In this document: positions 1 through 11,350 of the stretch, one piece after another
How the letters are laid out: each line of letters begins with the position of its first letter
Numbering within the stretch: position 1 is the first letter of the stretch
Source: a virus
DNA length: 40,431 nt
Virus record (IMG/VR): IMGVR_UViG_3300031857_000465
Coordinates: 1 to 40,431 of that record
Reading direction: 5' to 3' (one strand)
Notes under the pieces: model-generated
Seen by the model: the letters and a program-made list of their open reading frames with translations, nothing else
The model's database searches: none
Told to the model about the DNA's origin: nothing
Translations under genes and position numbers: made by a program

Positions 1-486
1 GTTTAATAGTTGAGTACGGAATCTTCGTTCAAATTCTTTAATATTATCTTTATTATATGAACATTCTTCTGGCATATAGCAATAGAGTCCTACACACTGA
101 GCCTTGCGGTAGTCATTTGAGATAGTGCTTGTGATATGCCTAAAAGTATTGCCAGAACAAATAAGGTCGTCAATTATTATGTACCTCCAAGGAGTAACAC
201 CTTCCATAAAAAAATTTGAATAACATTCCTCGTTTTTCTTACGAATAACAATAATATGTTTATTCAGCAGTTCAGCAATTTGTGGAACAACCATCAAACC
301 ACTAATACCACAGCAGGCTATACTATCAAACTCATCAGTTATCTTACGCAAATCACAAATGGCCTTTATGATTATAGAATTTCTGTGCTTATGATTTAGC
401 ACTTTTGTAGTATGGCTACAACCCTTAATATATTGGCCGTCTGGAGTAACTCGATGATCTTCTAGTTTCTGATGTAGTATATTCAT
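1..486 (-). CDS. Phosphoribosyltransferase-like protein (3' end beyond window)
   Basis: I translated this leftward frame from ATG at 484-486; it stays open for 162 codons to the window edge, so the C-terminus is missing. A segment reading YIIIDDLICSGNTF matches the PRPP-binding signature of type I phosphoribosyltransferases (hydrophobic strand, two acidic residues, then S/T-G-x-T). An upstream CCGISGLM segment fits the family's glycine-containing loop. The family transfers phosphoribose from PRPP to a base, or acts as a regulator such as PyrR; the substrate cannot be told. The start lies in GTTATGA, the outer box of the last attC-like site, and no good ribosome site is seen. Base composition is AT-rich, like the phage and unlike the adjacent cassettes. 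Confidence 0.75.
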   Translation of the reverse strand, partial: MNILHQKLEDHRVTPDGQYIKGCSHTTKVLNHKHRNSIIIKAICDLRKITDEFDSIACCGISGLMVVPQIAELLNKHIIVIRKKNEECYSNFFMEGVTPWRYIIIDDLICSGNTFRHITSTISNDYRKAQCVGLYCYMPEECSYNKDNIKEFERRFRTQLLN

Positions 487-594
487 AACAGCACGGATGA
501 TACGATTCGAACGTATAAGAAAGGAATAAGAAAGGCTAGTTGCCTATAATAGATACTTGTCCCACCAAGTTGCATCCGTGAAGAAGAGTTCTCA
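483..594 (-). repeat. Possible attC-like site 0 (end of cassette array)
   Basis: On the minus strand it begins TGAGAAC, containing the stop codon of the preceding ORF exactly as at two other sites, and ends GTTATGA. Between them CACGGATG pairs with CATCCGTG, but the spacers next to the boxes are unequal (7 and 2 nt) and a tRNA-like sequence fills the centre. It may be a real long attC, or a boundary where only the left box survives. Confidence 0.4.
493..579 (-). tRNA. tRNA-like gene or relic, class II size, anticodon unclear
   Basis: A 7-bp acceptor stem (ACGGATG with CATCCGT), a possible D arm (ACTT-GGTGGGAC-AAGT) and a clean T arm (ATACG-TTCGAAT-CGTAT) are visible. The 87-nt span suits a long-variable-arm tRNA. 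The middle is poor: the best anticodon arm (CTATT-ATAGGCA-ACTAG, anticodon AGG) has a mismatch and an unusual C37, and the variable region forms no stem. It may be decayed. It sits wholly inside a 112-bp interval bounded by attC-like boxes. Confidence 0.4.
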
Positions 595-819
595 CTTCGT
601 CCGCTCCAGCAGGCCGCGAGCCACAGCAACCGCCGCCTCGTCCTCTTGCCAGTGGCTTCCACCGGCCGTCCTGTCATCGTAGATTATGTCATTGGCGGCC
701 TCGCACAGCCGCTCAATCGCCTCCCGCTCCTCGTCGGTGAGCCGCAGGCGGGCAACCTCTCGCTGCAACTCCTCGTATGAGGGCGTGTCAGCAAACCGTC
801 CGATTGGTGTCGGCCTCAT
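592..819 (-). CDS. Integron-cassette hypothetical protein, LTDEERE type
   Basis: The 75-residue product starts at ATG 817-819 behind GGAGACAGAC. It has the pattern LTDEEREAIERL followed by an alanine-rich helix ending in ARGLLER. I recall this small charged helical family as common in Planctomycetes, with no known function. The TGA stop lies in the TGAGAAC box of the next attC-like site, as expected when one ORF fills a cassette. GC content is far above the phage background. It is related in sequence to the neighbouring cassette ORF at 884-1183 (shared LTDEEREA and RGLLER). Confidence 0.75.
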   Translation of the reverse strand: MRPTPIGRFADTPSYEELQREVARLRLTDEEREAIERLCEAANDIIYDDRTAGGSHWQEDEAAVAVARGLLERTK

Positions 820-836
820 GTCTGTCTCCATGCCTG

Positions 837-886
837 TGAGAACCACGCGATGCTGCGGACTGCGCCGCAGATCGCAAGCGTTCTCA
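837..886 (-). repeat. attC-like recombination site A (short form)
   Basis: A 50-bp imperfect palindrome. Minus strand: TGAGAAC, then GCGAT-CTGCGG pairing with CCGCAG-C-ATCGC, then GTTCTCA. The arms are complementary except for an unpaired C and unequal spacers, the asymmetry expected of a folded attC bottom strand. The outer AAC/GTT core is kept. It overlaps the stop codon of the ORF at 884-1183. Confidence 0.8.
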
Positions 887-1183
887 GCCTAGTCGTTCCA
901 GCAGGCCGCGAAACACAATTGCGGCGCGCTTTGCGTCTTCAAGCCCTACTCTGTCGTATTCGTCGGCTTGCCTAATGCCGTACTCCAACGCCTCCCGCTC
1001 CTCGTCGGTGAGCGTGGGGTGGCCAAGCCGCACCACAGTCCCACCGACCATCGCGGCCTCGCTCGTCGCGTCCTTTTCCAGAAACCACAGCGAGTGCTGC
1101 ACGCCCTCGTCGTCAATCACGGCGTAGGCCATCACCGCAGAACCACGCGATGCAGCGGACATCTCATCTACCTCTTTCGTCAT
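884..1183 (-). CDS. Integron-cassette hypothetical protein, LTDEERE type
   Basis: The product has 99 residues if translation starts at ATG 1181-1183, which has a strong AGGAGCGACC ribosome site. That start lies in the loop of attC-like site B, so the first residues (up to about SRGSAVM) would be read from the site. A shorter start at MAYAVIDD is possible but lacks a ribosome site. The C-terminal half repeats the motif LTDEEREALEYG...FRGLLERLG of the next cassette. No known function. The stop is in the TGAGAAC box of site A. High GC, unlike the phage. Confidence 0.75.
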   Translation of the reverse strand: MTKEVDEMSAASRGSAVMAYAVIDDEGVQHSLWFLEKDATSEAAMVGGTVVRLGHPTLTDEEREALEYGIRQADEYDRVGLEDAKRAAIVFRGLLERLG

Positions 1184-1225
1184 GGTCGCTCCTGTGTTCG
1201 ATGCCGCTGATCGCAGCCGTTATGT
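1137..1225 (-). repeat. attC-like recombination site B (long loop)
   Basis: An 89-bp site. Minus strand ACATAAC ... GCGATCAGCGG pairs with CCGCTGCATCGC ... GTTCTGC. Arm sequences match sites A and C closely (accacgcgatgc-gcgg on the plus strand). The central loop of about 45 bp holds a ribosome site and ATG for the next ORF. Confidence 0.75.
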
Positions 1226-1387
1226 AACCAGAAGTCGGCACCCAAGTGCGATAACAGCAACAACGGCTCCGGTCGCCCCAAACACTACAGCAACGGCGGG
1301 CCAGCCGCCGTGCATGTGGCACAACACCGCAACGCCCGCAAATGGGGATGAGGTCAGTGCAACGCCGATTATTTGAGTGATTGTCAT
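1220..1387 (-). CDS. Cassette-borne small membrane protein (55 aa)
   Basis: ATG at 1385-1387 behind GGAGACACACAC. The product, MTITQIIGVAL... to ...GCRLLVT, has two hydrophobic segments (about residues 5-22 and 29-50) around a His-Met-His turn, so it is probably a two-helix inner-membrane protein. The TAA stop lies in the ACATAAC box of site B, which places the gene as the complete content of one cassette. Function unknown. A longer overlapping frame on this strand runs through site C and is not credible. Confidence 0.65.
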   Translation of the reverse strand: MTITQIIGVALTSSPFAGVAVLCHMHGGWPAVAVVFGATGAVVAVIALGCRLLVT

Positions 1388-1397
1388 GTGTGTGTCT

Positions 1398-1446
1398 CCA
1401 TAACCACGCGACGCAGCGGACGAGCCGCTGATCGCTGGCGTTCTCA
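1398..1446 (-). repeat. attC-like recombination site C (short form)
   Basis: A 49-bp imperfect palindrome. Minus strand TGAGAAC, GCGATCAGCGG pairing with CCGCTGCGTCGC, then GTTATGG. It is nearly identical in arms to sites A and B and overlaps the stop codon of the ORF at 1444-1815. Confidence 0.8.
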
Positions 1447-1815
1447 GCCGTCAAGGCAGAGGTTTGATATTCCGCTCGCGAAGTTTACTGGCTTTCCGCT
1501 CTCGTCGCGGATCACAAGATCGACGCGGTACAGATAAGAAGGGTCGTAGTCGCACTCAACTTGCTCAACACGCACTACCTCCCAATCGAAAGAACCGAAC
1601 CGCACGTGCTGGCCCACTGACGGGAGAATGCACGCCGGCACAACCGTTGCCCCAATGACGCGACGCCAGCCCGCAACAAATACGCGGTTCTTTGACCGCC
1701 GCAAAACCTTACCAGAGCAGTTCTCTACCAACTTCCAAGACACCGGCATTTCGCTACCCCTTTGCTTCTGCGAACCAAGACGATGCAGCGGACTCGCGTC
1801 AACGTCTGAAATCAT
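1444..1815 (-). CDS. Integron-cassette hypothetical protein (123 aa)
   Basis: Start at ATG 1813-1815 with a near-perfect AGGAGG ribosome site inside the loop of site D. A second plausible start (MPVSWKLV, behind AAAGGGG) would give about 102 residues and avoid translating the attC arm. The product is rich in short beta-type stretches (VFVAGWRR, HVRFGSFDWEVVRV, YRVDLVIRDE). I recognise no family. The stop codon lies in the TGAGAAC box of site C. GC-rich. Confidence 0.65.
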   Translation of the reverse strand: MISDVDASPLHRLGSQKQRGSEMPVSWKLVENCSGKVLRRSKNRVFVAGWRRVIGATVVPACILPSVGQHVRFGSFDWEVVRVEQVECDYDPSYLYRVDLVIRDESGKPVNFASGISNLCLDG

Positions 1816-1862
1816 GTCGTCCTCCTGCGGCTGCGAGCCGCTCCTGGTCCTGAGTGTTATTC
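1769..1862 (-). repeat. Divergent attC-like site D (upstream edge of array)
   Basis: The R' side (CCGCTGCATCGTCTTGGTTCGCA) matches the other sites. The other half (AATAACACTCAGGACCAGGAGCGG) pairs only in patches and contains its own perfect hairpin GCGGCT-CGC-AGCCGC (opposite-strand reading). It may be the hybrid junction where the first cassette entered phage DNA. Confidence 0.5.
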
Positions 1863-2015
1863 TTCCACTATTTCATCGGCCAAAATATGATAGTAATTGT
1901 CCCATTCTCTTTCATCGTAGAGATTAGTTTCATAACTGTGGTCATCATCATACGAAAAGAGTTCGTCTGAGTCTTTTACAATATCTTCATAATTCTCATA
2001 CTCGCCATGAAACAT
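1857..2015 (-). CDS. Small acidic phage protein (52 aa)
   Basis: ATG at 2013-2015 follows AAGGAGAG at ideal spacing. The product is very acidic and tyrosine-rich (MFHGEYENYEDIVKDSDE...), AT-rich in codons, and so belongs to the phage and not to the cassettes. It is the first gene after the strong promoter at 2035-2063. Its TAA stop sits in the AATAAC outer box of site D, so cassettes appear to have inserted exactly at its 3' end. Function unknown. Confidence 0.7.
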   Translation of the reverse strand: MFHGEYENYEDIVKDSDELFSYDDDHSYETNLYDEREWDNYYHILADEIVEE

Positions 2016-2034
2016 AAAACTCTCCTTTAATCGC

Positions 2035-2063
2035 ATTATACACCAAACACCGTCCGCTGTCAA
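2035..2063 (-). promoter_or_regulatory. Consensus sigma-70 promoter for 1857-2015 and the cassette array
   Basis: TTGACA, 17 bp, TATAAT on the minus strand, 20 bp upstream of the start codon. The spacer ends GGTGTATAAT, so it also contains the GGTGTATA string seen in the late region. Confidence 0.8.
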
Positions 2064-2136
2064 TGGGTCATGTAGGACTCGAACCTACAACCTACAACTT
2101 AAAAGGATGCTGCTCTGCCAATTGAGCTAATGACCC
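2064..2136 (-). tRNA. tRNA-Lys (TTT)
   Basis: 73 nt. Acceptor GGGTCAT/ATGACCC, D arm GCTC...GAGC, anticodon loop CTTTTAA, T arm GTAGG-TTCGAGT-CCTAC. One mismatch in the anticodon stem. CCA is not encoded. Confidence 0.9.
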
Positions 2137-2148
2137 GTATTTAGCCTT

Positions 2149-2176
2149 ATTGTACCTCGCCAGATTGTTTTGTCAA
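2149..2176 (-). promoter_or_regulatory. Promoter for tRNA-Lys
   Basis: TTGACA, 16 bp, TACAAT, ending 13 bp before the 5' end of the tRNA. Confidence 0.7.
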
Positions 2177-2177
2177 G

Positions 2178-2250
2178 TGACCCTACGGGGATTCGAACCC
2201 CGATATTCGGAACGAAAATCCGAAGTCCTAAACCGTTAGACGATAGGGCC
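2178..2250 (-). tRNA. tRNA-Glu (TTC)
   Basis: 73 nt. Acceptor GGCCCTA/TAGGGTC, anticodon arm TCGGA-TTTTCGT-TCCGA, T arm CGGGG-TTCGAAT-CCCCG. CCA not encoded. Confidence 0.92.
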
Positions 2251-2289
2251 ACACTCGCAACTCAAACGTCAGCCTCCGAAACATATAAG

Positions 2290-2365
2290 TAGGGCGTGTA
2301 CGAGTCGAACGTACCTAAGATCACCTTATAAGAGTGACGGATGCAACCGGCTTACCTTACGCCCC
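2290..2365 (-). tRNA. tRNA-Ile (TAT)
   Basis: 76 nt. Acceptor GGGGCGT/ACGCCCT, anticodon arm TCACT-CTTATAA-GGTGA, T arm GTACG-TTCGACT-CGTAC. The D arm is poorly paired. It reads the AUA codon, frequent in the AT-rich late genes. Confidence 0.85.
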
Positions 2366-2375
2366 GTGTTGTGGG

Positions 2376-2403
2376 ATTATACCTTGTTATCGACCGTTGT
2401 CAA
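2376..2403 (-). promoter_or_regulatory. Consensus promoter for tRNA-Ile and downstream tRNAs
   Basis: TTGACA, 16 bp containing CGATAAC, TATAAT; 11 bp before the tRNA 5' end. Confidence 0.8.
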
Positions 2404-2415
2404 GTAAAAGTTTAG

Positions 2416-2495
2416 TGGTGGATGAGGGACTCGAACCCCCGAAGCCGAAGCACCTGATCTACAGTCAGGCCCATTTGCCGCTCTGGAAATCCACC
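2416..2495 (-). tRNA. tRNA-Tyr (GTA)
   Basis: Class II. Acceptor GGTGGAT/ATCCACC, anticodon arm CCTGA-CTGTAGA-TCAGG, long variable arm, T arm with TTCGAGT loop. Confidence 0.92.
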
Positions 2496-2497
2496 AA

Positions 2498-2584
2498 CGG
2501 AATCTACAGGATTCGAACCTGTGGAGGATTTTAACCCTCGGCGGCTTAGTAAACCGCTGCCTTAAACCACTCGGCCAAGATTCC
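2498..2584 (-). tRNA. tRNA-Ser with anticodon ACT
   Basis: Acceptor GGAATCT/AGATTCC with G73, D arm, long variable arm GAGG...CCTC, T arm ACAGG-TTCGAAT-CCTGT. The anticodon arm GCGGT-TTACTAA-GCCGC puts ACT at 34-36, where bacterial serine tRNAs normally have GCT. Confidence 0.85.
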
Positions 2585-2586
2585 AA

Positions 2587-2657
2587 CAAAGGCGGAGGGA
2601 ATCGAACCCCCATCTACGGTTTTGGAGACCGTCGTTCTACCGTTGAACTACGCCAAT
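2587..2657 (-). tRNA. tRNA-Trp (CCA)
   Basis: D arm GTTC...GAAC, anticodon arm ACGGT-CTCCAAA-ACCGT, T arm GGGGG-TTCGATT-CCCTC, G73. The acceptor (ATTGGCG against CGCCTTT) has T-T mismatches at pairs 2 and 3. Confidence 0.85.
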
Positions 2658-2666
2658 CAAACTAAG

Positions 2667-2738
2667 CACACGGGGTAGGATTCGAACCTACATCTGACAA
2701 ATTAACAGTTTGGGGCATTACCATTATGCTACCCGTGT
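2667..2738 (-). tRNA. tRNA-Asn (GTT)
   Basis: Acceptor ACACGGG/CCCGTGT, anticodon loop CTGTTAA, T arm GTAGG-TTCGAAT-CCTAC, G73. Confidence 0.92.
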
Positions 2739-2747
2739 ATAAATCAT

Positions 2748-2820
2748 ATGCCCGGCTAGGATTCGAACCTAGACTCAGTTGATCCAAAGTCAACAGCTTT
2801 ACCAGTTAAGCTACCGGGCA
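2748..2820 (-). tRNA. tRNA-Gln (TTG)
   Basis: Acceptor TGCCCGG/CCGGGCA with the U1-A72 pair typical of glutamine tRNA, anticodon arm GTTGA-CTTTGGA-TCAAC, T arm CTAGG-TTCGAAT-CCTAG. Confidence 0.93.
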
Positions 2821-2853
2821 GCATTATTCACCGTTTTTTATTTCAATTCCTAG

Positions 2854-2926
2854 AGCCGGTAGTAGGATTTGCACCCACGACATTCAAATTACAAATTTGA
2901 CACTCTGCTAACTGAGTTATACCGGC
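2854..2926 (-). tRNA. tRNA-Thr (TGT) with altered T loop
   Basis: Acceptor GCCGGTA/TACCGGC, anticodon arm TCAAA-TTTGTAA-TTTGA. The T loop reads TGCAAAT where TTCAAAT is expected, so position 55 is G. Confidence 0.88.
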
Positions 2927-3007
2927 AAAGAGGATAGTTTTTATTTAAAGATAGAATACCCTCATAAACTATCTTCTCGATTTGTCATGACTCAAACCAA
3001 GAATAAC

Positions 3008-3202
3008 CTATATATCATACTCCTTACGCCACTTCCTGTCAATATCGCTGCGGGTACGTTGACGCTTGGGCCGATTGTCCATAACCGTATACCGCTCCTC
3101 CCTGTGACCCGTAGGAAGTTCCCACCGCTGCTTGGTTTTGATTTTGATACTGTTGTACTTGCGACGTGGCCGCATATCGTCGTTGTTGTGGGGGATGATC
3201 AT
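3008..3202 (-). CDS. Small basic protein overlapping 3039-3401 (64 aa)
   Basis: A strongly basic product (RPRRKYNSIKIKTKQRWELP..., DNRPKRQRTRSDIDRKWR...) whose DNRPKRQRTR segment I recall from small phage proteins. It starts at ATG 3200-3202 without a convincing ribosome site and overlaps the 3' half of 3039-3401 in another frame. A promoter-like TTGACA-N16-TACAAT at 3269-3296 lies just upstream. It may be the true gene here, or both frames may be used. Confidence 0.5.
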   Translation of the reverse strand: MIIPHNNDDMRPRRKYNSIKIKTKQRWELPTGHREERYTVMDNRPKRQRTRSDIDRKWRKEYDI

Positions 3203-3401
3203 ACCATTGTCCGTTTTCGTGAAGGTAAAAAATCCTATCTAGGTTAGGGTCATACGCCATTAAACAATATTGTACAGGATACTTAGGAGTTGTCAAATTT
3301 TTATTTAGGGGAGGAATTTTTATATCCCCTTTTTGATAATCCTTAACACCCGTATACACCAAAGCAGCAGCAGTCAACGCAACGCCAATCCATTGTAGCA
3401 T
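3039..3401 (-). CDS. Membrane-anchored hypothetical protein (120 aa)
   Basis: Starts at ATG 3399-3401 with GGAGGGTTAAT upstream. Residues 1-18 form a hydrophobic anchor (MLQWIGVALTAAALVY), followed by a lysine-rich stretch, an FYLHENGQWYDHPP segment and a low-complexity Gln/Tyr/Gly/Ser tail. The last half overlaps 3008-3202 in a different frame, so the C-terminal part may be non-coding in this frame. A promoter-like sequence spans the start codon and another lies within the gene. Confidence 0.5.
   Translation of the reverse strand: MLQWIGVALTAAALVYTGVKDYQKGDIKIPPLNKNLTTPKYPVQYCLMAYDPNLDRIFYLHENGQWYDHPPQQRRYAATSQVQQYQNQNQAAVGTSYGSQGGAVYGYGQSAQASTYPQRY
3269..3296 (-). promoter_or_regulatory. 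Promoter-like sequence inside 3039-3401
   Basis: TTGACA, 16 bp, TACAAT. It would transcribe 3008-3202 with a leader of about 60 nt. Confidence 0.45.
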
Positions 3402-3419
3402 ATTAACCCTCCTTGTCAA
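3392..3419 (-). promoter_or_regulatory. Promoter-like sequence over the start of 3039-3401
   Basis: TTGACA, 16 bp, TACAAT; the spacer contains the ribosome site and start codon. It stands 48 bp from repeat element R1, in the same order as other element-promoter pairs. Confidence 0.4.
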
Positions 3420-3466
3420 ACCCTTGTCCATGAAAGAATTATCGGCCAATCGTACCAGAAACTTAA

Positions 3467-3510
3467 CTGCCGTTTTGGCAGATCGCCCGGCCGCCCTGCC
3501 ATTATGGCAG
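3467..3510. repeat. 44-bp double-palindrome element R1
   Basis: CTGCCGTTTTGGCAG, 14 bp with a CCGGCC core, then CTGCCATTATGGCAG. The second palindrome supplies the stop codon of 3502-3744. Confidence 0.9.
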
Positions 3511-3744
3511 AGTGTCATCCGTCAATTCGGATTCGGCGGCACGAATAATGCTAGAAGTAGGAATTACGTTAGTACCATTATCAGCACTGACATAATCACG
3601 AAAACCACGCTCATCAATATAAAAATACTCATCTATTGTATCCATCTTGTTAGTCATTAGGAATCCGGCCACTCCAGCCTCAAGAGGATCACTATGGTCC
3701 ATAATCACTTGAAGCGTACCACTATTAACATAATACTTAGCCAT
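3502..3744 (-). CDS. Hypothetical protein (80 aa)
   Basis: Starts at ATG 3742-3744 behind AAGGATATAAC, 12 nt after the stop of 3757-4461, so the two are probably cotranscribed. The product is acidic (MAKYYVNSGTLQVIMDHSDP...) and ends LTDDTLP, the last codons and TAA stop being read out of repeat element R1. No family recognised. Confidence 0.7.
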   Translation of the reverse strand: MAKYYVNSGTLQVIMDHSDPLEAGVAGFLMTNKMDTIDEYFYIDERGFRDYVSADNGTNVIPTSSIIRAAESELTDDTLP

Positions 3745-3756
3745 TGTTATATCCTT

Positions 3757-4461
3757 TTAGTGGGCAGGAAATAGTACGTTAGCCAAACCCTTGACGCACA
3801 TATCACAACTAATACTATCCTTAGTACCAGTACAAGTAATAACTGATCGACCACGACGAATCTCGGGGCAAACAACATACTTGACATCTTCGATAATTAC
3901 CAGTTTAGGCAAAGCCTTACGCCACGCATCGGCCTTGGCCTTACTCTTTGGACGCTTGGGAGCAATCTTAGTATCACTATCGCACCACGCAAACAACTTA
4001 AAACCGGCAGACACCGCAGCAGCCCTATCTTCTGCATTATGAATACTAGCATAGACGGCCATATACTTTTCCAGTACAACAAGCCGACTATCGTAGATAT
4101 GAGTATAAAACCACATATTAGGCAGACTAATACCATCGGCCAGAACACTCTCACACGCCCACGTTACATTCTCAACATAGTTGGTATCAAGTTCGCCGTT
4201 GAGAAACCAATCGCCACGCTCATGCCAGCGGATGCTTTTATTACGCTTGATAGCATCAAGAATCATAGCACGAATCTTATGCTTTTCGGTAATAACATTA
4301 GCAAAGCCCGCGGTGCGAGCGTTCTTATACTGATTCTCGGTGGCTTCGGCATAGCAGCCATTATTGAGAAAGTCGCACGTTGACGGGCAAGTGTCGCCAA
4401 CAGGACGCGAAACCACAATGCAACCCTTACCCAACTTGTCGTTACCATCAGCAGTTTTCAT
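3757..4461 (-). CDS. Cysteine-rich GP88/DUF7227-like phage protein
   Basis: 234 residues from ATG 4459-4461, behind AAGGGAGATAACC. The N-terminus KLGKGCIVVSRPVGDTCP is the opening I associate with mycobacteriophage GP88-like proteins: glycine-rich, then Cys residues (CPSTCDFLNNGCYAEA). A second Cys group lies near the C-terminus (CTGTKDSISCDMC). Together they suggest a metal or Fe-S site. A central aromatic segment (SIRWHERGDWF) is also typical. Biochemical role is not established. First gene after the promoter at 4484-4511. Confidence 0.7.
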   Translation of the reverse strand: MKTADGNDKLGKGCIVVSRPVGDTCPSTCDFLNNGCYAEATENQYKNARTAGFANVITEKHKIRAMILDAIKRNKSIRWHERGDWFLNGELDTNYVENVTWACESVLADGISLPNMWFYTHIYDSRLVVLEKYMAVYASIHNAEDRAAAVSAGFKLFAWCDSDTKIAPKRPKSKAKADAWRKALPKLVIIEDVKYVVCPEIRRGRSVITCTGTKDSISCDMCVKGLANVLFPAH

Positions 4462-4483
4462 GGTTATCTCCCTTGTGCTAGTG

Positions 4484-4511
4484 ATTCTACACTACGTTAT
4501 CGGCTTGTCAA
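4484..4511 (-). promoter_or_regulatory. Early promoter for 3757-4461
   Basis: TTGACA, AGCCGATAACGTAGTG, TAGAAT. It is a type example of the repeated early promoter, with CCGATA in the spacer. Confidence 0.82.
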
Positions 4512-4535
4512 GAGAAAGAATCCACAAAATTTTAA

Positions 4536-4579
4536 CTGCCATTTTGGCAGTTCGGCCGCGGAGCCTGCCATTTTGGCAG
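4536..4579. repeat. 44-bp double-palindrome element R2
   Basis: Two perfect CTGCCATTTTGGCAG palindromes 14 bp apart, 25 bp upstream of the promoter at 4484-4511 and just 3' of tRNA-Asp. Confidence 0.92.
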
Positions 4580-4582
4580 AAG

Positions 4583-4656
4583 CGAGAGCGACGGGACTCG
4601 AACCCGCAACCTCCAGCGTGACAGGCTGGCGATCTAACCGATTGATCTACGCTCCC
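4583..4656 (-). tRNA. tRNA-Asp (GTC)
   Basis: Acceptor GGGAGCG/CGCTCTC, D arm GATC...GATC, anticodon arm CCAGC-CTGTCAC-GCTGG, T arm GCGGG-TTCGAGT-CCCGT, G73. Confidence 0.93.
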
Positions 4657-4660
4657 TAAA

Positions 4661-4732
4661 TAGCCCCAAGAGGAATCGAACCTCTAATACAGGATTAGAA
4701 ATCCCGTGTTATATCCTTTTAACTATGGGGCC
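4661..4732 (-). tRNA. tRNA-Arg (TCT)
   Basis: Acceptor GGCCCCA/TGGGGCT, anticodon arm CGGGA-TTTCTAA-TCCTG, T arm AGAGG-TTCGATT-CCTCT. It reads AGA, the main arginine codon of the late genes. Confidence 0.92.
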
Positions 4733-4738
4733 GAAATA

Positions 4739-4775
4739 CCGATAGCCGCCAGTGCGTCCACCAGCGGTCTATCGG
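4739..4775 (-). other. Long stem-loop between 4799-5056 and tRNA-Arg
   Basis: CCGATAG-CCGC pairs with GCGG-T-CTATCGG around a 14-nt loop. No U-run follows, so a processing or stability hairpin is likelier than a terminator. Confidence 0.6.
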
Positions 4776-4798
4776 ACATTATAACTCCCGAACCGTGT

Positions 4799-5056
4799 TC
4801 AGCCAACAGTCTCCGCCTCAACCTTAGTAGTCTTAGCCTTGTGACCGTCACCGGCTTCCTTGACACTCACACCGAACTTGCGATTACGGGCAACCTTCCA
4901 GCCCTGCTCGCTATAGTCCTTGATACCCTGGGCCTTGACCACCACAAGAGTACCATCGGGCAGACCATCGGCAAGAGCCTGACGAATCGTATCCTCAACC
5001 ACTTCCGTATCAAGAGTGTCCGACGCAACAGCAACCGCAAAATCATAAGTACGCAT
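4799..5056 (-). CDS. Hypothetical protein (85 aa)
   Basis: Start chosen at ATG 5054-5056 behind GGGAAAGG. The product (MRTYDFAVAVASDTLDTEVVEDTIRQ...) has an alternating strand-helix pattern, a DGLPDGTLVVVKAQGI turn-strand and a lysine-rich C-terminus. No family recognised. Tandem promoters at 5101-5129 and 5189-5216 precede it, and read-through would make the tRNA-Arg/Asp precursor. Confidence 0.75.
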   Translation of the reverse strand: MRTYDFAVAVASDTLDTEVVEDTIRQALADGLPDGTLVVVKAQGIKDYSEQGWKVARNRKFGVSVKEAGDGHKAKTTKVEAETVG

Positions 5057-5100
5057 AGTAAAAACCTTTCCCAAAAGAGTTATCAACCACCAATAAACGA

Positions 5101-5129
5101 ATCATACATCACTTATCGTCACTTGTCAA
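5101..5129 (-). promoter_or_regulatory. Proximal early promoter for 4799-5056
   Basis: TTGACA, 17 bp with CGATAAG, TATGAT. Confidence 0.75.
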
Positions 5130-5188
5130 GTGCTGGGTTGAACTTTTTTGTGTTGCAGTCAACCAGCGTCTTGTCTCGTGATAACATC

Positions 5189-5216
5189 ATTCTACACTAA
5201 GCATCGGCATTGTCAA
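5189..5216 (-). promoter_or_regulatory. Distal tandem early promoter
   Basis: TTGACA, 16 bp with CCGATGC, TAGAAT. Between it and the proximal promoter only a 23-codon frame is possible, so it may make a long leader. Confidence 0.75.
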
Positions 5217-5239
5217 GTATCATACATGAATTTTTTATG

Positions 5240-5283
5240 CTGTCATTTTGGCAGATCGCCCGGCCCCGCTGCCATTTTGGCAG
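5240..5283. repeat. 44-bp double-palindrome element R3
   Basis: CTGTCATTTTGGCAG and CTGCCATTTTGGCAG flanking a CCCGGCCCC core, 24 bp upstream of the promoter at 5189-5216. Confidence 0.9.
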
Positions 5284-5295
5284 ACAGGGTTTGGA

Positions 5296-5667
5296 TCATG
5301 AGAGAAAACCCTCACAACCCAAAGTGGTCAGATCACGCAGCAGATTCTCGGCCGCTTCCGGAGTCTTGAGGGTGATGCTCTGCTTGGCGTTGGGAGAAGC
5401 AGGATGCCACTTGTCGTACTTCCAGCCGCCAACCAGAAAATCCGTCCACTCCTTTGCCTCCTTAAAACCCCAGCCGGCGTGGAGTCGGATAGCCTTGATA
5501 CAAGGAACACGGTTATCAAGAGTCATGCCAGCGGTGATAGTAACCATCCTGTGCTGGTTCACACCCAACGCAACCTCAAAAGCGGCCACAATCCGCTCAT
5601 AGATATCGAGGTGGCAGTTCGTCGCCAGATTCATAGCCTCACGAACCGTCAGTTCCAACTTGATCAT
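5296..5667 (-). CDS. Protein with ribosomal L7/L12 C-terminal-like segment
   Basis: 123 residues, starting at ATG 5665-5667 behind AAAGGGTTTGAAT. Residues around 68-95 (CIKAIRLHAGWGFKEAKEW) resemble the L7/L12 C-terminal helix-turn (I-K-x-I-R-x-x-x-x-x-G-L-K-E-A-K), the part of L12 that contacts translation factors. The similarity is short. The gene may act on translation or simply reuse the fold. It follows 5670-6083 within 2 bp, so the two form an operon. Confidence 0.6.
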   Translation of the reverse strand: MIKLELTVREAMNLATNCHLDIYERIVAAFEVALGVNQHRMVTITAGMTLDNRVPCIKAIRLHAGWGFKEAKEWTDFLVGGWKYDKWHPASPNAKQSITLKTPEAAENLLRDLTTLGCEGFLS

Positions 5668-5669
5668 AT

Positions 5670-6083
5670 TCAAACCCTTTCTTCCAAAATATAAACTTGT
5701 TTGCCGTTAGTTAGTAGAGTAGCGTATTCACTATTATCCCAAATGAACTCGTTATTGTCGCTTTCACGACGCCAGTGCGGATCTCTCAACGGATTGTAGT
5801 ATAATTTCTCAAGATTGTCAACCCCTACTTCATTATTTATTCTAACATCCCTACACTCAACCCACCCCGTAACATCCTTAACGCCAGCCTCATGAACCTT
5901 TTTAGCCTGATTAACCTTATTGATTAATTTGCACCCAATCATCTCTAATTGATAATAGGCAGGATCACAATAGTAAACATCAACCTTCTCTTTTCCTTGT
6001 ACAATCTTGATTTGCCAATGCTTAAAAAACTGACCTTTACCAAGATGGAATCGAACTTCGGCATGTAGTGGTTTCTGTTTCAT
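5670..6083 (-). CDS. Conserved-type phage hypothetical protein (137 aa), leaderless
   Basis: ATG 6081-6083 lies only 6 nt after the -10 box of the promoter at 6090-6118, so the mRNA should begin at or next to the AUG. The sequence (EVRFHLGKGQFFKHWQI..., NQAKKVHEAGVKDVTGWVECRDV...) has the look of a conserved phage protein with paired beta strands and WxxC, but I cannot assign a function. Cotranscribed with 5296-5667. Confidence 0.72.
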   Translation of the reverse strand: MKQKPLHAEVRFHLGKGQFFKHWQIKIVQGKEKVDVYYCDPAYYQLEMIGCKLINKVNQAKKVHEAGVKDVTGWVECRDVRINNEVGVDNLEKLYYNPLRDPHWRRESDNNEFIWDNSEYATLLTNGKQVYILEERV

Positions 6084-6089
6084 GCTTGT

Positions 6090-6118
6090 AGTATATCTTA
6101 TCGGCTAGTGCTTGTCAA
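6090..6118 (-). promoter_or_regulatory. Early promoter for the 6083-5296 operon
   Basis: TTGACA, 17 bp with CCGATAAG, TATACT. Confidence 0.8.
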
Positions 6119-6128
6119 GACCTTTAAT

Positions 6129-6212
6129 CCCCGATGGAGGAGTTGAACCACTTGACAGCCGCCACACATAATATGTCAACTGATTTACAGTCAGTCGTGT
6201 GGAACATCGGGG
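6129..6212 (-). tRNA. tRNA-Tyr-like gene without a normal D arm
   Basis: Acceptor CCCCGATG/CATCGGGG and a perfect anticodon arm ACTGA-CTGTAAA-TCAGT (GTA) are present, with a long variable region closed by TGACA/TGTCA. Only 9 nt (TTCCACACG) separate acceptor and anticodon arm, so no D arm fits. CCACAC there can pair with GTGTGG in the variable region. The T arm is weak. It has its own promoter. Confidence 0.5.
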
Positions 6213-6245
6213 TATTTCGCTTTAGTTATGCGTCTTGTTGTTTCT

Positions 6246-6274
6246 ATTATACCTTATCGACCAAACCTTGTCAA
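6246..6274 (-). promoter_or_regulatory. Consensus promoter for the tRNA-Tyr-like gene
   Basis: TTGACA, 17 bp with CGATAAG, TATAAT. Confidence 0.8.
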
Positions 6275-6289
6275 GACCTTTAAACTTTC

Positions 6290-6328
6290 GCTGACTACAG
6301 CCACACCAGCCAAATCCGAAGGATTGGG
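6290..6328 (-). repeat. UUCG-hairpin intergenic element, copy 1
   Basis: Minus-strand RNA: AATC-CTTCGG-ATT, then GCTG-TAGT-CAGC. It lies 16 bp upstream of the promoter at 6246-6274 and matches 10294-10336. Confidence 0.75.
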
Positions 6329-6395
6329 AAAAACAAATATTTCAAACGCTTTGGTGTCTACTATATAGAGCGTTTACAATTCGGACTAAAAAGAA

Positions 6396-6478
6396 TACCG
6401 CTGGCGAGACTTGAACTCGCAAGCCTATAAGGCGTGACATTTTAAGTGTCATGTGTATGCCAATTCCACCACAGCGGC
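6396..6478 (-). tRNA. tRNA-Leu (TAA)
   Basis: Class II, 83 nt. Acceptor GCCGCTG/CAGCGGT, anticodon arm TGACA-CTTAAAA-TGTCA, variable arm GCCTTATAGGC, T arm GCGAG-TTCAAGT-CTCGC, A73. Confidence 0.93.
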
Positions 6479-6492
6479 ATGGTTGTGTATTA

Positions 6493-6521
6493 AGTATACT
6501 CCTATGATCGGCGTCTGTCAA
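6493..6521 (-). promoter_or_regulatory. Early promoter for tRNA-Leu
   Basis: TTGACA, 17 bp with CCGATC, TATACT. Confidence 0.78.
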
Positions 6522-6543
6522 GAGTATTCTTAAGAAAAAAAGA

Positions 6544-6587
6544 ATGCCATTTTGGCAGATCGGCCGGCCAGCCTGCCATTTTGGCGG
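6544..6587. repeat. 44-bp double-palindrome element R4
   Basis: ATGCCATTTTGGCAG, a GGCCGGCC core, CTGCCATTTTGGCGG. It abuts the stop of 6588-6713 and is 23 bp upstream of the promoter at 6493-6521. Confidence 0.9.
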
Positions 6588-6713
6588 TTAATCGTTTCCG
6601 ATATACCACCAGTGGCATTGCTGGCAAAATAACCAGATTAAACCATTATCATCATATTTCCATACTAGCACATCACAAGCGCCACATGGACAAATATCAC
6701 TAAGAGTTTTCAT
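6588..6713 (-). CDS. Small zinc-ribbon-like protein (41 aa)
   Basis: ATG 6711-6713, overlapping the end of 6700-6873 by 14 nt. The product MKTLSDICPCGACDVLVW...LFCQQCHWWYIGND has C-x-C-x-x-C and C-x-x-C-H groups about 20 residues apart, as in a zinc ribbon. Ribosome site is weak, so it probably depends on coupling with the preceding gene. Its stop touches element R4. Confidence 0.6.
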   Translation of the reverse strand: MKTLSDICPCGACDVLVWKYDDNGLIWLFCQQCHWWYIGND

Positions 6714-6873
6714 ATACTAATTTCACATACTTATCCACAAGTTCACTAGCACTAATTTTATGAGTAGAGATTAATTCTTTAGTTCTCTCTATATTATTCT
6801 TATTCATGGCACTCATACGAGAGTTAAAAAAGTTAATCACATAAATCAACGCCTTATCTTTATTGTCAATCAT
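6700..6873 (-). CDS. Small hypothetical protein (57 aa)
   Basis: ATG 6871-6873 overlaps the stop of 6870-7109 as ATGA, a coupled start. The product (MIDNKDKALIYVINFFNSR...) is helical and lysine-rich with a possible hydrophobic face. A longer frame upstream on this strand overlaps the previous gene and is not used. Function unknown. Confidence 0.68.
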   Translation of the reverse strand: MIDNKDKALIYVINFFNSRMSAMNKNNIERTKELISTHKISASELVDKYVKLVYENS

Positions 6874-7109
6874 GATGGATAATCCTTTGGGTAATCTTTC
6901 TCTGGTTTTGCTGGTCTGTAAGGTTGCCAATACGGGGCATCCATACGATCCACAACGCCGGGAGCCTCGTCGCATAAAATAATATGAGGACTTACAGGAT
7001 CATTTGGAGAATAATGGTATATACCAACCCACACACCAATATATTTTCCATAATACCAAATCTTTTGCCCGTCTTCTGGTTGACGATCAAAAAAACTAAT
7101 CCATTCCAT
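6870..7109 (-). CDS. DUF551-like small protein (79 aa)
   Basis: ATG 7107-7109 behind AAAGGAATAGGT. It starts MEWISFFDRQPEDGQKIWYY and ends ...APYWQPYRPAKPEKD, the W-I-x-x-x-D-x-x-P-x-x-G-Q...W-x-P layout of DUF551-type phage proteins, which have no known function. It is cotranscribed with 6700-6873 and 6588-6713. Confidence 0.72.
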   Translation of the reverse strand: MEWISFFDRQPEDGQKIWYYGKYIGVWVGIYHYSPNDPVSPHIILCDEAPGVVDRMDAPYWQPYRPAKPEKDYPKDYPS

Positions 7110-7154
7110 ACCTATTCCTTTTGCAGATAATACTCTGGCATAATAGAACCATTT

Positions 7155-7337
7155 TTAGGACACACTACCAGTTTTGGCTTCCTCAATCTTTTCCAAAACT
7201 CTATTTTGCATCTTTACAAACTGAGCATGACTACCCCCCCAATTACCCCATGAAACACCAGAGTCAATATGTTCATGAACAACACTCAGAAGATAATCAA
7301 GTTCAGTCTTAGTCAGTTCAAGAGTTTCAGTTTTCAT
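7155..7337 (-). CDS. Small hypothetical protein (60 aa)
   Basis: ATG 7335-7337 with only a weak AAGAAA ribosome site. The product (MKTETLELTKTELDYLLSVVHEHIDSG...) is helical and acidic, with a tryptophan/glycine-rich centre (SWGNWGGSH) and a C-terminal helix KMQNRVLEKIEEA. It could pair with another small protein. No family recognised. Confidence 0.65.
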   Translation of the reverse strand: MKTETLELTKTELDYLLSVVHEHIDSGVSWGNWGGSHAQFVKMQNRVLEKIEEAKTGSVS

Positions 7338-7397
7338 TGTTATTTCTTATAAGGATTTAGACCAATCTCATTACATTAGGTTGTCCATAATGCCAGT

Positions 7398-7625
7398 TCA
7401 TTTCGTCCTAGCAATAATTAAGCACTTTGTACCAGTTTTCTCATCTGTAAACTCCACGCACTCATGAGGCCCATAATACCAAGCCCCTTCACCGCGTTGG
7501 ACATCAAATACAATATCATTATTGTCCAATCTAATATCATTATACCCACCCTCATACCCAAGAGTCAATACCCTCATATCGCCCGGATAATTCTTCAACA
7601 TCTCAATAAGTTCATTAACGGTCAT
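7398..7625 (-). CDS. Hypothetical phage protein (75 aa)
   Basis: ATG 7623-7625 behind AGGTGGA; the upstream GTG is less likely. It opens MTVNELIEMLKNYPGDMRVL, a pattern (x-V-x-x-L-I-x-x-L-x-x-Y-P-x-D-x-x-V) I recognise in many small phage and mobile-element proteins of unknown function, followed by GYEGGYNDI. The start overlaps the stop of 7625-7741 (TAATG). Confidence 0.75.
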   Translation of the reverse strand: MTVNELIEMLKNYPGDMRVLTLGYEGGYNDIRLDNNDIVFDVQRGEGAWYYGPHECVEFTDEKTGTKCLIIARTK

Positions 7626-7741
7626 TATTTCCACCTAAAACTAAATTTAGTAGCCTCGTTATCACAAATAAAAGTAAAGTATGCCAAAAAGAACATGGTT
7701 AAAGATGGGAAAAACAGAATTATTTTACGAAATACTCTCAT
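7625..7741 (-). CDS. Single-span membrane microprotein (38 aa)
   Basis: ATG 7739-7741 behind GAGAAAAAAA. The product has a basic N-terminus (MRVFRK) and one hydrophobic span (IILFFPSLTMFFLAYFTFI), probably N-in. It ends with TAA overlapping the next start. The chain of overlaps 7725-7829, 7625-7741, 7398-7625 argues for translation as a coupled set. Confidence 0.6.
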   Translation of the reverse strand: MRVFRKIILFFPSLTMFFLAYFTFICDNEATKFSFRWK

Positions 7742-7829
7742 TTTTTTTCTCTAAGACTTTTTCCACAATCTTCATCATCTCTTGAAACTTTGGATCAAGA
7801 AACTCATCCAGAAACTCTTGCAGTGTCAT
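7725..7829 (-). CDS. Helical microprotein (34 aa)
   Basis: ATG 7827-7829 without an obvious ribosome site, 12 nt after the stop of 7842-8042. The product MTLQEFLDEFLDPKFQEMMK... is a single amphipathic acidic helix. It overlaps 7625-7741 by 17 nt. Existence is supported by the overlap chain, not by homology. Confidence 0.45.
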   Translation of the reverse strand: MTLQEFLDEFLDPKFQEMMKIVEKVLEKKNESIS

Positions 7830-7841
7830 TTCAGTATTCTA

Positions 7842-8042
7842 TCATTCCTGACCGGCTATGTCAATATCTTTTATCGGAAACCAGCCACTCCAACCATCAG
7901 TCAAATTTTTCATCAAAATAGCATCTTCGCCCGGCCAGCAAGGAACACTCTTAGCATCCTGCTCAACCTTCCAAAGACCCGGATGACGTTTCAGCCGTTC
8001 TTTTGTCCACTTTCGTGCGTTTTGTTTTGGTATGATTTTCAT
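7842..8042 (-). CDS. Hypothetical protein (66 aa), leaderless
   Basis: ATG 8040-8042 lies 6 nt after the -10 box (TAGAAT) of the promoter at 8049-8076, the same geometry as at 6083. The product has a basic N-terminal half (MKIIPKQNARKWTKERLKRH) and a central VPCWPGEDAILMKNL segment resembling short phage beta-barrel-type proteins. Function unknown. Confidence 0.68.
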   Translation of the reverse strand: MKIIPKQNARKWTKERLKRHPGLWKVEQDAKSVPCWPGEDAILMKNLTDGWSGWFPIKDIDIAGQE

Positions 8043-8048
8043 AAAACT

Positions 8049-8076
8049 ATTCTACCATTCTTTATCATCAAGTCAA
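8049..8076 (-). promoter_or_regulatory. Early promoter for 7842-8042
   Basis: TTGACT, 16 bp, TAGAAT. Confidence 0.7.
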
Positions 8077-8668
8077 GTACCGACCGCCGATAGTTTTACG
8101 AACAGCCTCTCGGTACTGATCCGTTCAACCTCAAGGTTTTACCTTATCTAAGGGAAACTATCAGCAGATTTGTAACCAGCGAATCTTTTACGCCCCGATT
8201 CTATGAAAACCGTCCACGGAAATCCTCCCTGCAAATAAGGTGGTATTGCGCATATAACCCTATTTGGTCTGGCTCTTAGAAACGGTTACTGGTTGTATTG
8301 TATATGGCAACGTTTTTAGCCTATCACAAAGGATGGGAAGGGCGAACGTTTTTAATCCTAACCTATTATCTAGGAACCATAATATTGTTTATGGGTGTCA
8401 CCTATTTCTACTCCTGCTTTCGCAGTTTGGGAGGCCGCGTGGAAGGTTCGTCACCGGTAACTCCCCTTCGCTCCGCTGTGCTTTGCCTCGTCATACGGAA
8501 AACCGTCACCCATAAAGTATTGGTCGTGGTGAGGACGCCATCCCCCATAGATTGGTACTTCTATCCAACGTATAACCCCGTTGGCAACTCCCCCAGTCTT
8601 TCAGAGAAAGTTTATCGAAATAGGTTATCCCAATCTAGTCCCGCCGCATGGACCCACGAAAGTTTGTG
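8077..8668 (-). ncRNA. Candidate large structured non-coding RNA (about 590 nt)
   Basis: No minus-strand ORF is credible here, yet a promoter at 8674-8701 reads into it. The minus-strand RNA contains many clean helices. These include CCAACG/CGTTGG (8565-8584), CTGC-GAAA-GCAG (8414-8425), CCATAA/TTATGG (8377-8394) and AAGGT/ACCTT (8133-8145). A 10-bp long-range stem CTGATAGTTT/AAACTATCGG joins 8155-8164 to 8087-8096. At the 3' end GAACGG/CTGTTC (8121-8126 with 8100-8105) interlocks with GTACCGA/TCGGTAC (8110-8116 with 8077-8083) as a possible pseudoknot. Size, tRNA-rich phage context and density of helices recall the large ornate RNAs such as GOLLD and ROOL. I cannot assign it to a known class. 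Confidence 0.6.
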
Positions 8669-8673
8669 TCACC

Positions 8674-8701
8674 AATATAGCATACGTTCTCGACTTGTCA
8701 A
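8674..8701 (-). promoter_or_regulatory. Promoter for the candidate RNA at 8077-8668
   Basis: TTGACA, 16 bp, TATATT. Start of transcription expected near 8667. Confidence 0.72.
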
Positions 8702-8745
8702 GCGTATAACACCGAATGAATCGGATTTTTGTTGGTGACTCTATC

Positions 8746-8773
8746 ATTCTACACTCTAGTATCGGCTTGTCAA
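8746..8773 (-). promoter_or_regulatory. Distal tandem early promoter
   Basis: TTGACA, 16 bp beginning AGCCGATA, TAGAAT. It reads through the promoter at 8674 into the candidate RNA; no clear gene lies between. Confidence 0.78.
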
Positions 8774-8797
8774 GAGACAAAATCCACAAGAAATTTC

Positions 8798-8841
8798 CTG
8801 CCATTATGGCAGATCGGCCGGCCCGCCTGCCGTTTTGGCAG
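8798..8841. repeat. 44-bp double-palindrome element R5
   Basis: CTGCCATTATGGCAG, a GGCCGGCC core, CTGCCGTTTTGGCAG, 25 bp upstream of the promoter at 8746-8773. Confidence 0.92.
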
Positions 8842-8851
8842 AAACTCCATC

Positions 8852-8882
8852 AGCCCGCCCTAGGGGTTTCCTAGGACGGGCT
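8852..8882 (-). terminator. Strong GC-rich hairpin after 8900-9310
   Basis: AGCCCGCCCTAGG pairs with CCTAGGACGGGCT (one mismatch, 5-nt loop), 18 bp past the stop of 8900-9310. There is no U-run, so termination would be Rho-assisted, or the hairpin protects the mRNA 3' end. Confidence 0.55.
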
Positions 8883-8899
8883 TGCGATGGAACATCTTT

Positions 8900-9310
8900 T
8901 CAGGACAGCAGTTCAGCCAGCCCTGTTCGGAAGGCTACCCCACCAAGGAGTGGCCGACGAACATTGCGGGTGCGTTCAGCGTAAAAGTTCCTAATCTTAC
9001 CATCTGGCGTTTGGGCCGTCACCATATGGCGGCTACGCTCAAAGTTAGGATCATACCTACGATACCTACTCACCGCATTCAGTCTAGCCAGATAATCAGC
9101 GGAAAACTCATGAACATCCAGCACCTTAGCCATAAATCGCTCAGGATCACCCGTCACGGGCTGAATATACTCAAAGTTGTATACTCGACCAACCCGTGCA
9201 TTGGTCAGACTATCCTTAACGCCACCATACACATGAAAACCAGCAAACGACAGAAGACCAGCAACCAATACCACAGCAGCAATAGCACCAATAATCACTT
9301 CATTCATCAT
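8900..9310 (-). CDS. Membrane-anchored hypothetical protein (136 aa)
   Basis: ATG 9308-9310 behind AAAGGGTTTC; a second ATG follows directly. Residues 4-24 (EVIIGAIAAVVLVAGLLSF) form a membrane anchor. The rest is soluble and rich in Arg and Tyr (RVYNFEYIQPVTGDPERFMAKV..., HMVTAQTPDGKIRNFYAER...), with a beta-barrel-like pattern. Monocistronic behind the promoter at 9343-9370. No family recognised. Confidence 0.7.
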   Translation of the reverse strand: MMNEVIIGAIAAVVLVAGLLSFAGFHVYGGVKDSLTNARVGRVYNFEYIQPVTGDPERFMAKVLDVHEFSADYLARLNAVSRYRRYDPNFERSRHMVTAQTPDGKIRNFYAERTRNVRRPLLGGVAFRTGLAELLS

Positions 9311-9342
9311 GAAACCCTTTCGTTTTGAAAAACCTTTTCCAT

Positions 9343-9370
9343 AGTCTAACCCATGATCGTCAAAAGTCAA
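9343..9370 (-). promoter_or_regulatory. Early promoter for 8900-9310
   Basis: TTGACT, 16 bp with CGATC, TAGACT. Confidence 0.65.
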
Positions 9371-9372
9371 GC

Positions 9373-9612: not shown

Positions 9613-9636
9613 GTTCTTTTCCTTTCGTGTTTGCTG

Positions 9637-9665
9637 ATTCTACACTAGATATCGGCAGTTGTCAA
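9637..9665 (-). promoter_or_regulatory. Early promoter for 9373-9612
   Basis: TTGACA, 17 bp with GCCGATATC, TAGAAT. Confidence 0.8.
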
Positions 9666-9688
9666 GCAATACTTAAAAATTTTTTTGA

Positions 9689-10110: not shown

Positions 10111-10131
10111 CCTTGAATTCCTTTTATTTAT

Positions 10132-11346: not shown

Positions 11347-11350
11347 GTTA

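What the first reader, a model, noticed from the sequence alone, without database searches (positions are those of the whole stretch)
483..1862. An integron-type cassette array without an integrase inside a phage genome
Four short GC-rich ORFs on one strand are separated by matching imperfect palindromes. Sites A, B and C share nearly identical arms, an AAC/GTT core and the extra-helical asymmetry of attC sites. Each ORF's stop codon falls in the outer box (TGAGAAC three times, ACATAAC once). GC content jumps against both flanks. The flanking genes are AT-rich phage genes. Integron cassettes lacking intI are known in chromosomes (CALIN); finding one in a lytic-type phage next to a tRNA cluster is unusual and would mean phages can carry and move cassettes.
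Basis: partly seen in the sequence, partly recalled or inferred. Interest (0 to 1): 0.9.

Follow-up and report, generated by a model that had tools for sequence, protein, structure and literature searches.

The report
Integron gene cassettes in giant phage
A large uncultured phage carries a short run of bacterial integron gene cassettes, probably picked up from a planctomycete-like host, which is a clear environmental example of a phage acting as a carrier for cassettes.

Summary
Window 589-1856 (joints uncertain by about 5 bases) is a 1.27-kb, 60% GC insert in a 37% GC phage contig. It holds four small minus-strand ORFs and three complete attC sites (covariance-model E 1.4e-17, 2.2e-17, 1.3e-12). 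A further attC is present in part: an R'' box at one end of the insert, the rest at the other. There is no integron integrase. This is a CALIN in a phage. A second, 122-kb IMG/VR record is 100% identical over the stretches compared, including both joints, so a simple chimera is unlikely. In relatives the gene before the insert is followed at once by the tRNA-like element after it. The attC type matches arrays with intI in planctomycete MAGs and in one Cyanobium record. The phage has a terminase and no detected integrase or resolvase. CALINs in virulent phages were published in 2023 (PMC9892861), so the kind is known. The right end lies at an attC R'' box; the left end does not keep the usual attC spacing, so integrase-mediated insertion is possible but not shown. 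Two side findings may matter more: attC sites carrying an in-frame start codon for the next cassette, and a covarying tRNA-like element without an anticodon arm.

The parts
1..486 (-). phage phosphoribosyltransferase-like gene (runs off the contig start)
   Evidence: PHROG 2068 E 7.7e-14; 91 relatives in viral contigs, 80 kept
493..579 (-). phage tRNA-like element without anticodon arm; phage side of the right joint
   Evidence: found in 60 of 80 loci L002-L081
588..594 (-). R'' box (TGAGAAC) of the ORF1 cassette, cut off from the rest of its attC by the right joint (about 588/589, within about 4 bases)
   Evidence: GAAGTGAGAAC precedes complete attC sites in other arrays
592..831 (-). cassette ORF1, 79 aa, LTDEEREA...LLERTK type, function unknown
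   Evidence: homologue in L196, 75% identical protein, followed by its own attC
837..886 (-). attC of the ORF2 cassette
   Evidence: cmsearch E 1.4e-17; hairpin with a bulged base in the right arm
884..1183 (-). cassette ORF2, 99 aa; start codon and Shine-Dalgarno lie inside the preceding attC
1137..1225 (-). attC of the ORF3 cassette, long form carrying SD + ATG for ORF2
   Evidence: cmsearch E 1.3e-12
1220..1387 (-). cassette ORF3, 55 aa, hydrophobic (membrane protein inferred by eye)
   Evidence: 93% identical homologue in a second phage-like contig, L164/L289
1398..1446 (-). attC of the ORF4 cassette
   Evidence: cmsearch E 2.2e-17
1444..1815 (-). cassette ORF4, 123 aa from the ATG inside the partial attC (or 101 aa from the ATG at 1749)
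   Evidence: partial homologues beside attC sites in L108 and L113
1768..1851 (-). partial attC (L'' to R') at the left end; its R'' box is missing
   Evidence: similar to a complete attC in L089; AAC-to-AGCGG spacing 13 instead of the usual 10; no R1 hit
1852..1857 (.). left joint region; ACTC (minus strand, 1855-1852) also occurs at the right joint (589-586)
   Evidence: sequence; flanks; attC spacing
1857..2027 (-). small acidic phage ORF; in relatives followed within a few bases by the tRNA-like element
2064..2926 (-). phage tRNA cluster (9 of the window's 12 tRNAs)

Best explanation
A fragment of four gene cassettes of the planctomycete integron type was captured by a large tailed phage, between the stop codon of a small acidic gene and a tRNA-like gene. 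Shown: the attC sites, the absence of intI in the 122-kb record, the phage context, and the gene order without the insert in relatives. Inferred: capture happened in an infected host that carries such an integron. The route I think most likely is joining of array DNA, broken or unpaired at attC hairpins, to the phage at a few matching bases (ACTC at both joints); this step is a guess from the joints. The cassettes lie in the same direction as the neighbouring phage genes and are probably transcribed by read-through (inferred). Two of the four ORFs have a start codon and ribosome-binding site inside the upstream attC. A host integrase could in principle take the cassettes up again from infecting phage DNA (inferred).
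For: attC model hits; 3 hits in the 122-kb record and none in the 79 other relatives' loci, 80 loci and 1.1 Mb searched. The 122-kb record is 100% identical over window 1-7000 and 20432-40431. In 59 of the 79 loci L003-L081 a gene stop is followed after 4-17 bases by the tRNA-like element (27 distinct spacers). Phage genes: terminase large subunit and tape measure protein, weak major head protein match, terminase in the 122-kb record. The exact attC arm has 4 matches in the species-genome collection, 3 in records labelled planctomycete; 3 of those 4 genomes have intI over cut-off on a contig with R1 attC hits. No tyrosine-recombinase family match in the window or the 122-kb record. A part of an attC at each end and ACTC at both joints.
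Against: No empty site from a close relative: the best other phosphoribosyltransferase is 67% identical and an exact-flank scan found only the same contig, so the joints are inferred to within a few bases. R1 attC sites are rare in the phylum sample: 3 of 119 genomes, G002 itself included, with stricter filters. One of the four exact genome matches is labelled Cyanobium, so the donor phylum is likely but not certain. The two phage records may come from the same sample or reads. No control phylum was searched.
Confidence: 0.8

Rival explanations
1. The host integron integrase itself inserted a four-cassette circle into the phage at an AAC/GTT site (secondary or attG-like site). The cassettes are reversed relative to G|TT, so the normally weak attC top strand would have been used.
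For: The right joint is at R'' TGAGAA|C. The left joint also has AAC (GAATAAC), and L063 has GAATAAC at the place of the inferred empty site. Joining the two ends of the insert gives a hairpin with paired outer boxes under RNA parameters. The ORF1 homologue in L196 is followed by an attC of the same CTCGC...GCGAG class as the left-end piece, a class seen in 7 of 170 sites counted. IntI1 is described as needing only GNT, extendable to GTTRRRY, at secondary sites (PMC10127599, passages). Qi et al. saw lower but detectable top-strand recombination for most of their phage attC sites (section 3.4).
Against: At the left end the AAC is 13 bases from AGCGG, against 10 in 146 of 161 sites, so the phage AAC is not in the R'' register. 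PMC11023631 (passages) states that only the attC bottom strand was found to be recombined, which would give the other orientation. The DNA-parameter fold of the joined site does not form the attC hairpin.
Confidence: 0.3
2. Chimeric assembly: an array contig fused to a phage contig.
For: Sharp GC steps at both borders; sequences with this attC arm are common in the viral collection, at least 119 stretches.
Against: Two joints would be needed, with the phage gene order of relatives resuming on the far side. A second, longer record is identical through both joints; whether it comes from other reads is unknown.
Confidence: 0.05
3. The contig is host chromosome or an integrated prophage next to a chromosomal integron.
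For: Viral collections contain misassigned pieces; 12 of the 14 attC-bearing loci profiled have high GC nearly throughout and may be host pieces.
Against: The phosphoribosyltransferase and tRNA-like element lie on one side and the acidic ORF, tRNAs and structural genes on the other, in the order of the phage family. No integrase or resolvase was found in the 122-kb record.
Confidence: 0.03

Closest known systems
CALINs in virulent phages (Qi et al. 2023, PMC9892861; abstract and sections 2.1 and 3.4 read)
   Same: attC clusters without intI in phage genomes, in some cases with cassettes in one direction; the authors also raise off-target homologous or illegitimate recombination at GTT-like motifs as the route in
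   Different: uncultured large phage, planctomycete-type attC, borders compared with insert-free relatives, one attC divided between the two ends; no recombination assay here
Planctomycete integron (here contig C19 of G002, record titled uncultured Planctomycetaceae bacterium)
   Same: same attC arms
   Different: that array has intI on the same contig (454.5 bits); the phage has none
Cassettes at secondary or attG sites (Recchia and Hall 1995 and Loot et al. 2024, seen only as citations in PMC10127599 and PMC12901181; Loot et al. is not held)
   Same: cassettes outside attI, next to a GTT triplet
   Different: left joint out of attC register and orientation reversed, so integrase action is not established
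ORF-11 of attI1, which helps translate cassettes lacking an initiation region (PMC4670013, passages)
   Same: a recombination site that supplies translation signals to the next cassette
   Different: here the start codon is inside attC and reads in frame into the next cassette

Membership tests
CALIN (cluster of attC sites lacking an integron integrase) | at least two attC sites close together | tested here: met
   three, at 837-886, 1137-1225, 1398-1446
CALIN (cluster of attC sites lacking an integron integrase) | AAC/GTT cores and an imperfect hairpin with extrahelical bases on one arm | tested here: met
   AAC/GTT in all three; bulge in the right arm in the model structure and in folds of two of the three; 837-886 and 1137-1225 fold fully under both parameter sets, 1398-1446 folds in the inner arms only
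CALIN (cluster of attC sites lacking an integron integrase) | no intI nearby | tested here: met
   no PF00589 match in the window or the 122-kb record; no TIGR02249 match in the 122-kb record
CALIN (cluster of attC sites lacking an integron integrase) | sites recombined by an integron integrase | not testable with these tools
   needs an attC x attI assay
Complete integron | intI gene beside attI and cassettes | tested here: not met
   no intI in the 122-kb record; attI was not sought
Phage genome | structural and packaging genes on the same contig | tested here: met
   terminase large subunit and tape measure protein, weak head protein match
Integrase-mediated insertion at a secondary or attG site | both joints at G|TT (AA|C) in register with the attC | tested here: inconclusive
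   right joint fits; left joint is 3 bases out of the usual register; no close empty site
Planctomycete-type integron array | same attC type on a contig with intI in genomes labelled planctomycete | tested here: met
   G002 and G003; but a Cyanobium record does so too, only 3 of 119 genomes of the phylum sample ring, and no other phylum was searched as a control

The most novel reading that the evidence does not exclude
Some attC sites of this type are also translation starts. Their terminal loop carries a Shine-Dalgarno and an ATG whose frame runs through the attC right arm into the next cassette, so that a cassette without its own start could be expressed by whichever such attC precedes it. 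Two of the four cassettes in this phage (ORF2, ORF4) are built this way, which would help express them in a phage that has no integron promoter.
Probability: 0.55. Interest if true: 0.7.

Novelty: new member of a known kind. Interest (0 to 1): 0.5.

Why it matters
It places integron cassettes in a large, apparently virulent environmental phage, with insert-free relatives that show the cassettes are an addition. A second, different phage-like contig (G125, 205 kb, with a terminase match) has a cassette protein 93% identical to ORF3. Cassettes may therefore pass repeatedly between planctomycete integrons and phages, and a planctomycete host for this phage lineage becomes a testable prediction. 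If attC sites really donate start codons, that adds a way in which integrons express captured genes.

Tried and rejected
I first read both joints as exact integrase crossovers (notes). One search showed that the left attC spacing does not fit, and the claim was withdrawn (note). A genome scan with the ORF2 protein found no relative. A scan for the left-end attC arm gave 69 stretches; apart from the phage's own record none passed my attC-context filter. A scan for the exact right-flank sequence found only the same contig, so no close empty site. Rfam gave no attC-type hit in window 1-7000 at E up to 1. PADLOC gave nothing for the four cassette ORFs; NCBIfam and Pfam gave only matches below cut-off. 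Comparing this terminase with 12 other attC-bearing contigs found nothing and is uninformative. No control phylum was searched with the attC model, so its specificity for Planctomycetota was not measured. The model's sites were selected by a pattern taken from the window's own arms. One search was given 56 of the 123 loci L082-L204; one search was given 34 of the 80 loci L289-L368; one search was given 13 records. In one search a few rows are spurious (L168, and L089 where the regex took an out-of-frame ATG); they were kept in the counts.

Full report
What is there. The window is a whole 40,431-base linear IMG/VR record. Window 589-1856 is GC-rich (0.602 against 0.371 for the rest) and holds four minus-strand ORFs of 79, 99, 55 and 123 aa. 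A covariance model built from 29 attC sites of other contigs finds three sites: 837-886 (E 1.4e-17), 1398-1446 (2.2e-17) and 1137-1225 (1.3e-12). The only other match at E up to 1 is the opposite-strand reading of the first. The model's sites were picked by a sequence pattern taken from the window's own arms, so it tests significance, not independent discovery. A further attC is present only in part: an R'' box (TGAGAAC) ends ORF1 at the right joint, and an L''-to-R' piece lies at 1768-1851 at the left joint. That piece resembles a complete attC in L089 from AGCGG onwards. The model did not find the partial piece.

It is a phage. The window encodes a terminase large subunit (PHROG 2, E 1.7e-23), a tape measure protein, a phosphoribosyltransferase and a weak major head protein match, and 12 tRNAs. 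A 122,350-base record, IMGVR_UViG_3300027816_000069 (L002/G001), matches window 1-7000 and 20432-40431 at 100% identity; 7001-20431 was not compared. Whether the two records rest on different reads is unknown. Related contigs reach 230-244 kb. Eight phage contigs were searched for a tyrosine recombinase (0 of 8 over cut-off, one sub-threshold match in G146) and a resolvase (0 of 8); seven are of this family, the eighth is G125. This fits a virulent phage but does not prove it, because the records may be incomplete. Matches of the head protein and terminase to phage records are all below 60% identity.

The insert is an addition. In relatives the small acidic ORF that precedes the insert is followed within a few bases by the tRNA-like element that follows it. 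Among loci L003-L081 this was measurable in 59 of 79, with 27 distinct spacers of 4-17 bases; the ORF in each was recognised as an open frame of at least 40 codons ending there, and its similarity to the window's ORF was seen by eye. None of these 79 loci has an attC hit. Joining the window's flanks gives GAATAA|CTCTTCTTCACGGATGC, and L063 reads GAATAACTCTCTCCTGACGGATGC at the same place. The closest relative is only 67% identical in the neighbouring protein, so the empty site is inferred.

How it got there. The right joint falls at the R'' box, where an integron integrase could cut, but bases shared by the phage and some attC sites blur it by about four bases. At the left joint AAC lies 13 bases from AGCGG, against 10 in 146 of 161 sites, so the phage AAC does not stand in for R''. 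ACTC occurs at both joints. If an integrase did it, the cassettes are reversed relative to G|TT, which needs the attC top strand. PMC11023631 (passages) says only the bottom strand was found to be recombined, while Qi et al. measured lower but detectable top-strand recombination for most of their phage-borne sites. I therefore prefer illegitimate capture of array DNA and give integrase insertion about 0.3. Neither is shown.

Where it came from. The exact arm AGAACCACGCGATGCNGCGGAC occurs in 4 stretches of the species-genome collection: MAG records titled Kuenenia, Planctomycetaceae and Planctomicrobium, and a Cyanobium record. G002, G003 and G005 have intI over the curated cut-off on a contig that also has R1 attC hits; G004 has attC but no intI over cut-off. 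In a sample of 119 genomes of G002's phylum only 3 ring, G002 among them. Ghaly et al. 2021 (PMC8352920, passages) list Planctomycetes among 11 taxa with recognisable attC sites; their model was not run here. Of 14 such loci profiled, 12 have high GC nearly throughout and may be host pieces.

Other phages. L164/L289 (G125, 205,010 bases, terminase E 1.2e-17) carries a GC-rich array after a MazG-like gene (named by eye from the translation), with four R1 attC hits and a cassette protein 93% identical to ORF3. The same 6,098 bases are in L290, from another sample. Of 34 MazG-related loci given to the model, 5 have attC hits at E up to 0.01: L289, L290, L291, L303 and L304. No terminase was found in the records of L290, L303 and L304, and that of L291 was not searched; of these only G125 is supported as a phage here.

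Function of the cassettes. Pfam, NCBIfam and PADLOC name none of the four above cut-off, and PHROGs gives one weak match to a family of unknown function (ORF3 was not in the PHROGs scan). ORF1 and ORF2 share the LTDEEREA...LLER ending that recurs in proteins of L164 and of several MazG-related loci.

attC sites with a start codon. Of 116 long-loop attC sites in the fetched loci, 43 have a Shine-Dalgarno-like motif and a start codon (ATG in 42, GTG in 1) in the loop. In 38 of 43 the frame stays open at least 20 codons past GTT, against 6 of 86 reads in the two other frames. Counting unique downstream cassettes with one clearly longest frame, the usual leader frame is used in 23 of 27, against 31 of 83 after other attC types (counts; Fisher p 1.5e-5). 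Without that filter the longest frame equals the leader frame in 28 of 41. In one leader class all 22 distinct leaders, taken by a pattern that allows 24-33 bases, have lengths divisible by three; differences are somewhat more common at third codon positions (230, against 198 first and 125 second). The sequences are not independent, and whether the following cassettes lack their own starts was not measured. One literature search (15 of 17 papers listed; passages of PMC4670013) showed ORF-11 of attI1 as the nearest idea and nothing in the listing about start codons inside attC; this is one search of an open-access library.

What is known. Qi et al. 2023 (PMC9892861; abstract, sections 2.1 and 3.4 read) screened 10,705 phage genomes, report 17 CALINs, and showed that phage attC sites are recognised by IntI1. 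The listings (20 of 36 papers; 12 of 358; 15 of 177) showed no report of planctomycete-type cassettes in a phage; most of the papers were not opened. I file the window as a new member of a known kind.

Noticed in passing
window 493-579 (minus strand); L002-L081: tRNA-like element with acceptor, D and T arms but no anticodon arm (25-42 base spacer), in 60 of 80 loci; 43 distinct versions keep all 16 pairs, many through changes on both sides (acceptor pairing was part of the filter, D and T stems were not). Not called by ARAGORN or Rfam in the window.
   Followed up: partly
window 1137-1225 and 1768-1851; L082-L204: attC sites whose loop carries a Shine-Dalgarno and ATG in frame with the next cassette.
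   Followed up: partly
L164/L289 (contig 3300042317_001568, 143679-152005) and L290: a second, different large phage-like contig with a cassette array after a MazG-like gene, near a tRNA-Gln; it shares a cassette with the window phage.
   Followed up: partly
L203 / G005 contigs C39 and C13: a Cyanobium sp. FGCU52 genome record holds intI and the same attC type on one contig (C39); real transfer or contamination is unresolved.
   Followed up: no
G146:C1:230243-231700: the terminase match in a 243-kb relative contains one TAG codon; frameshift, error or recoded stop was not examined.
   Followed up: no
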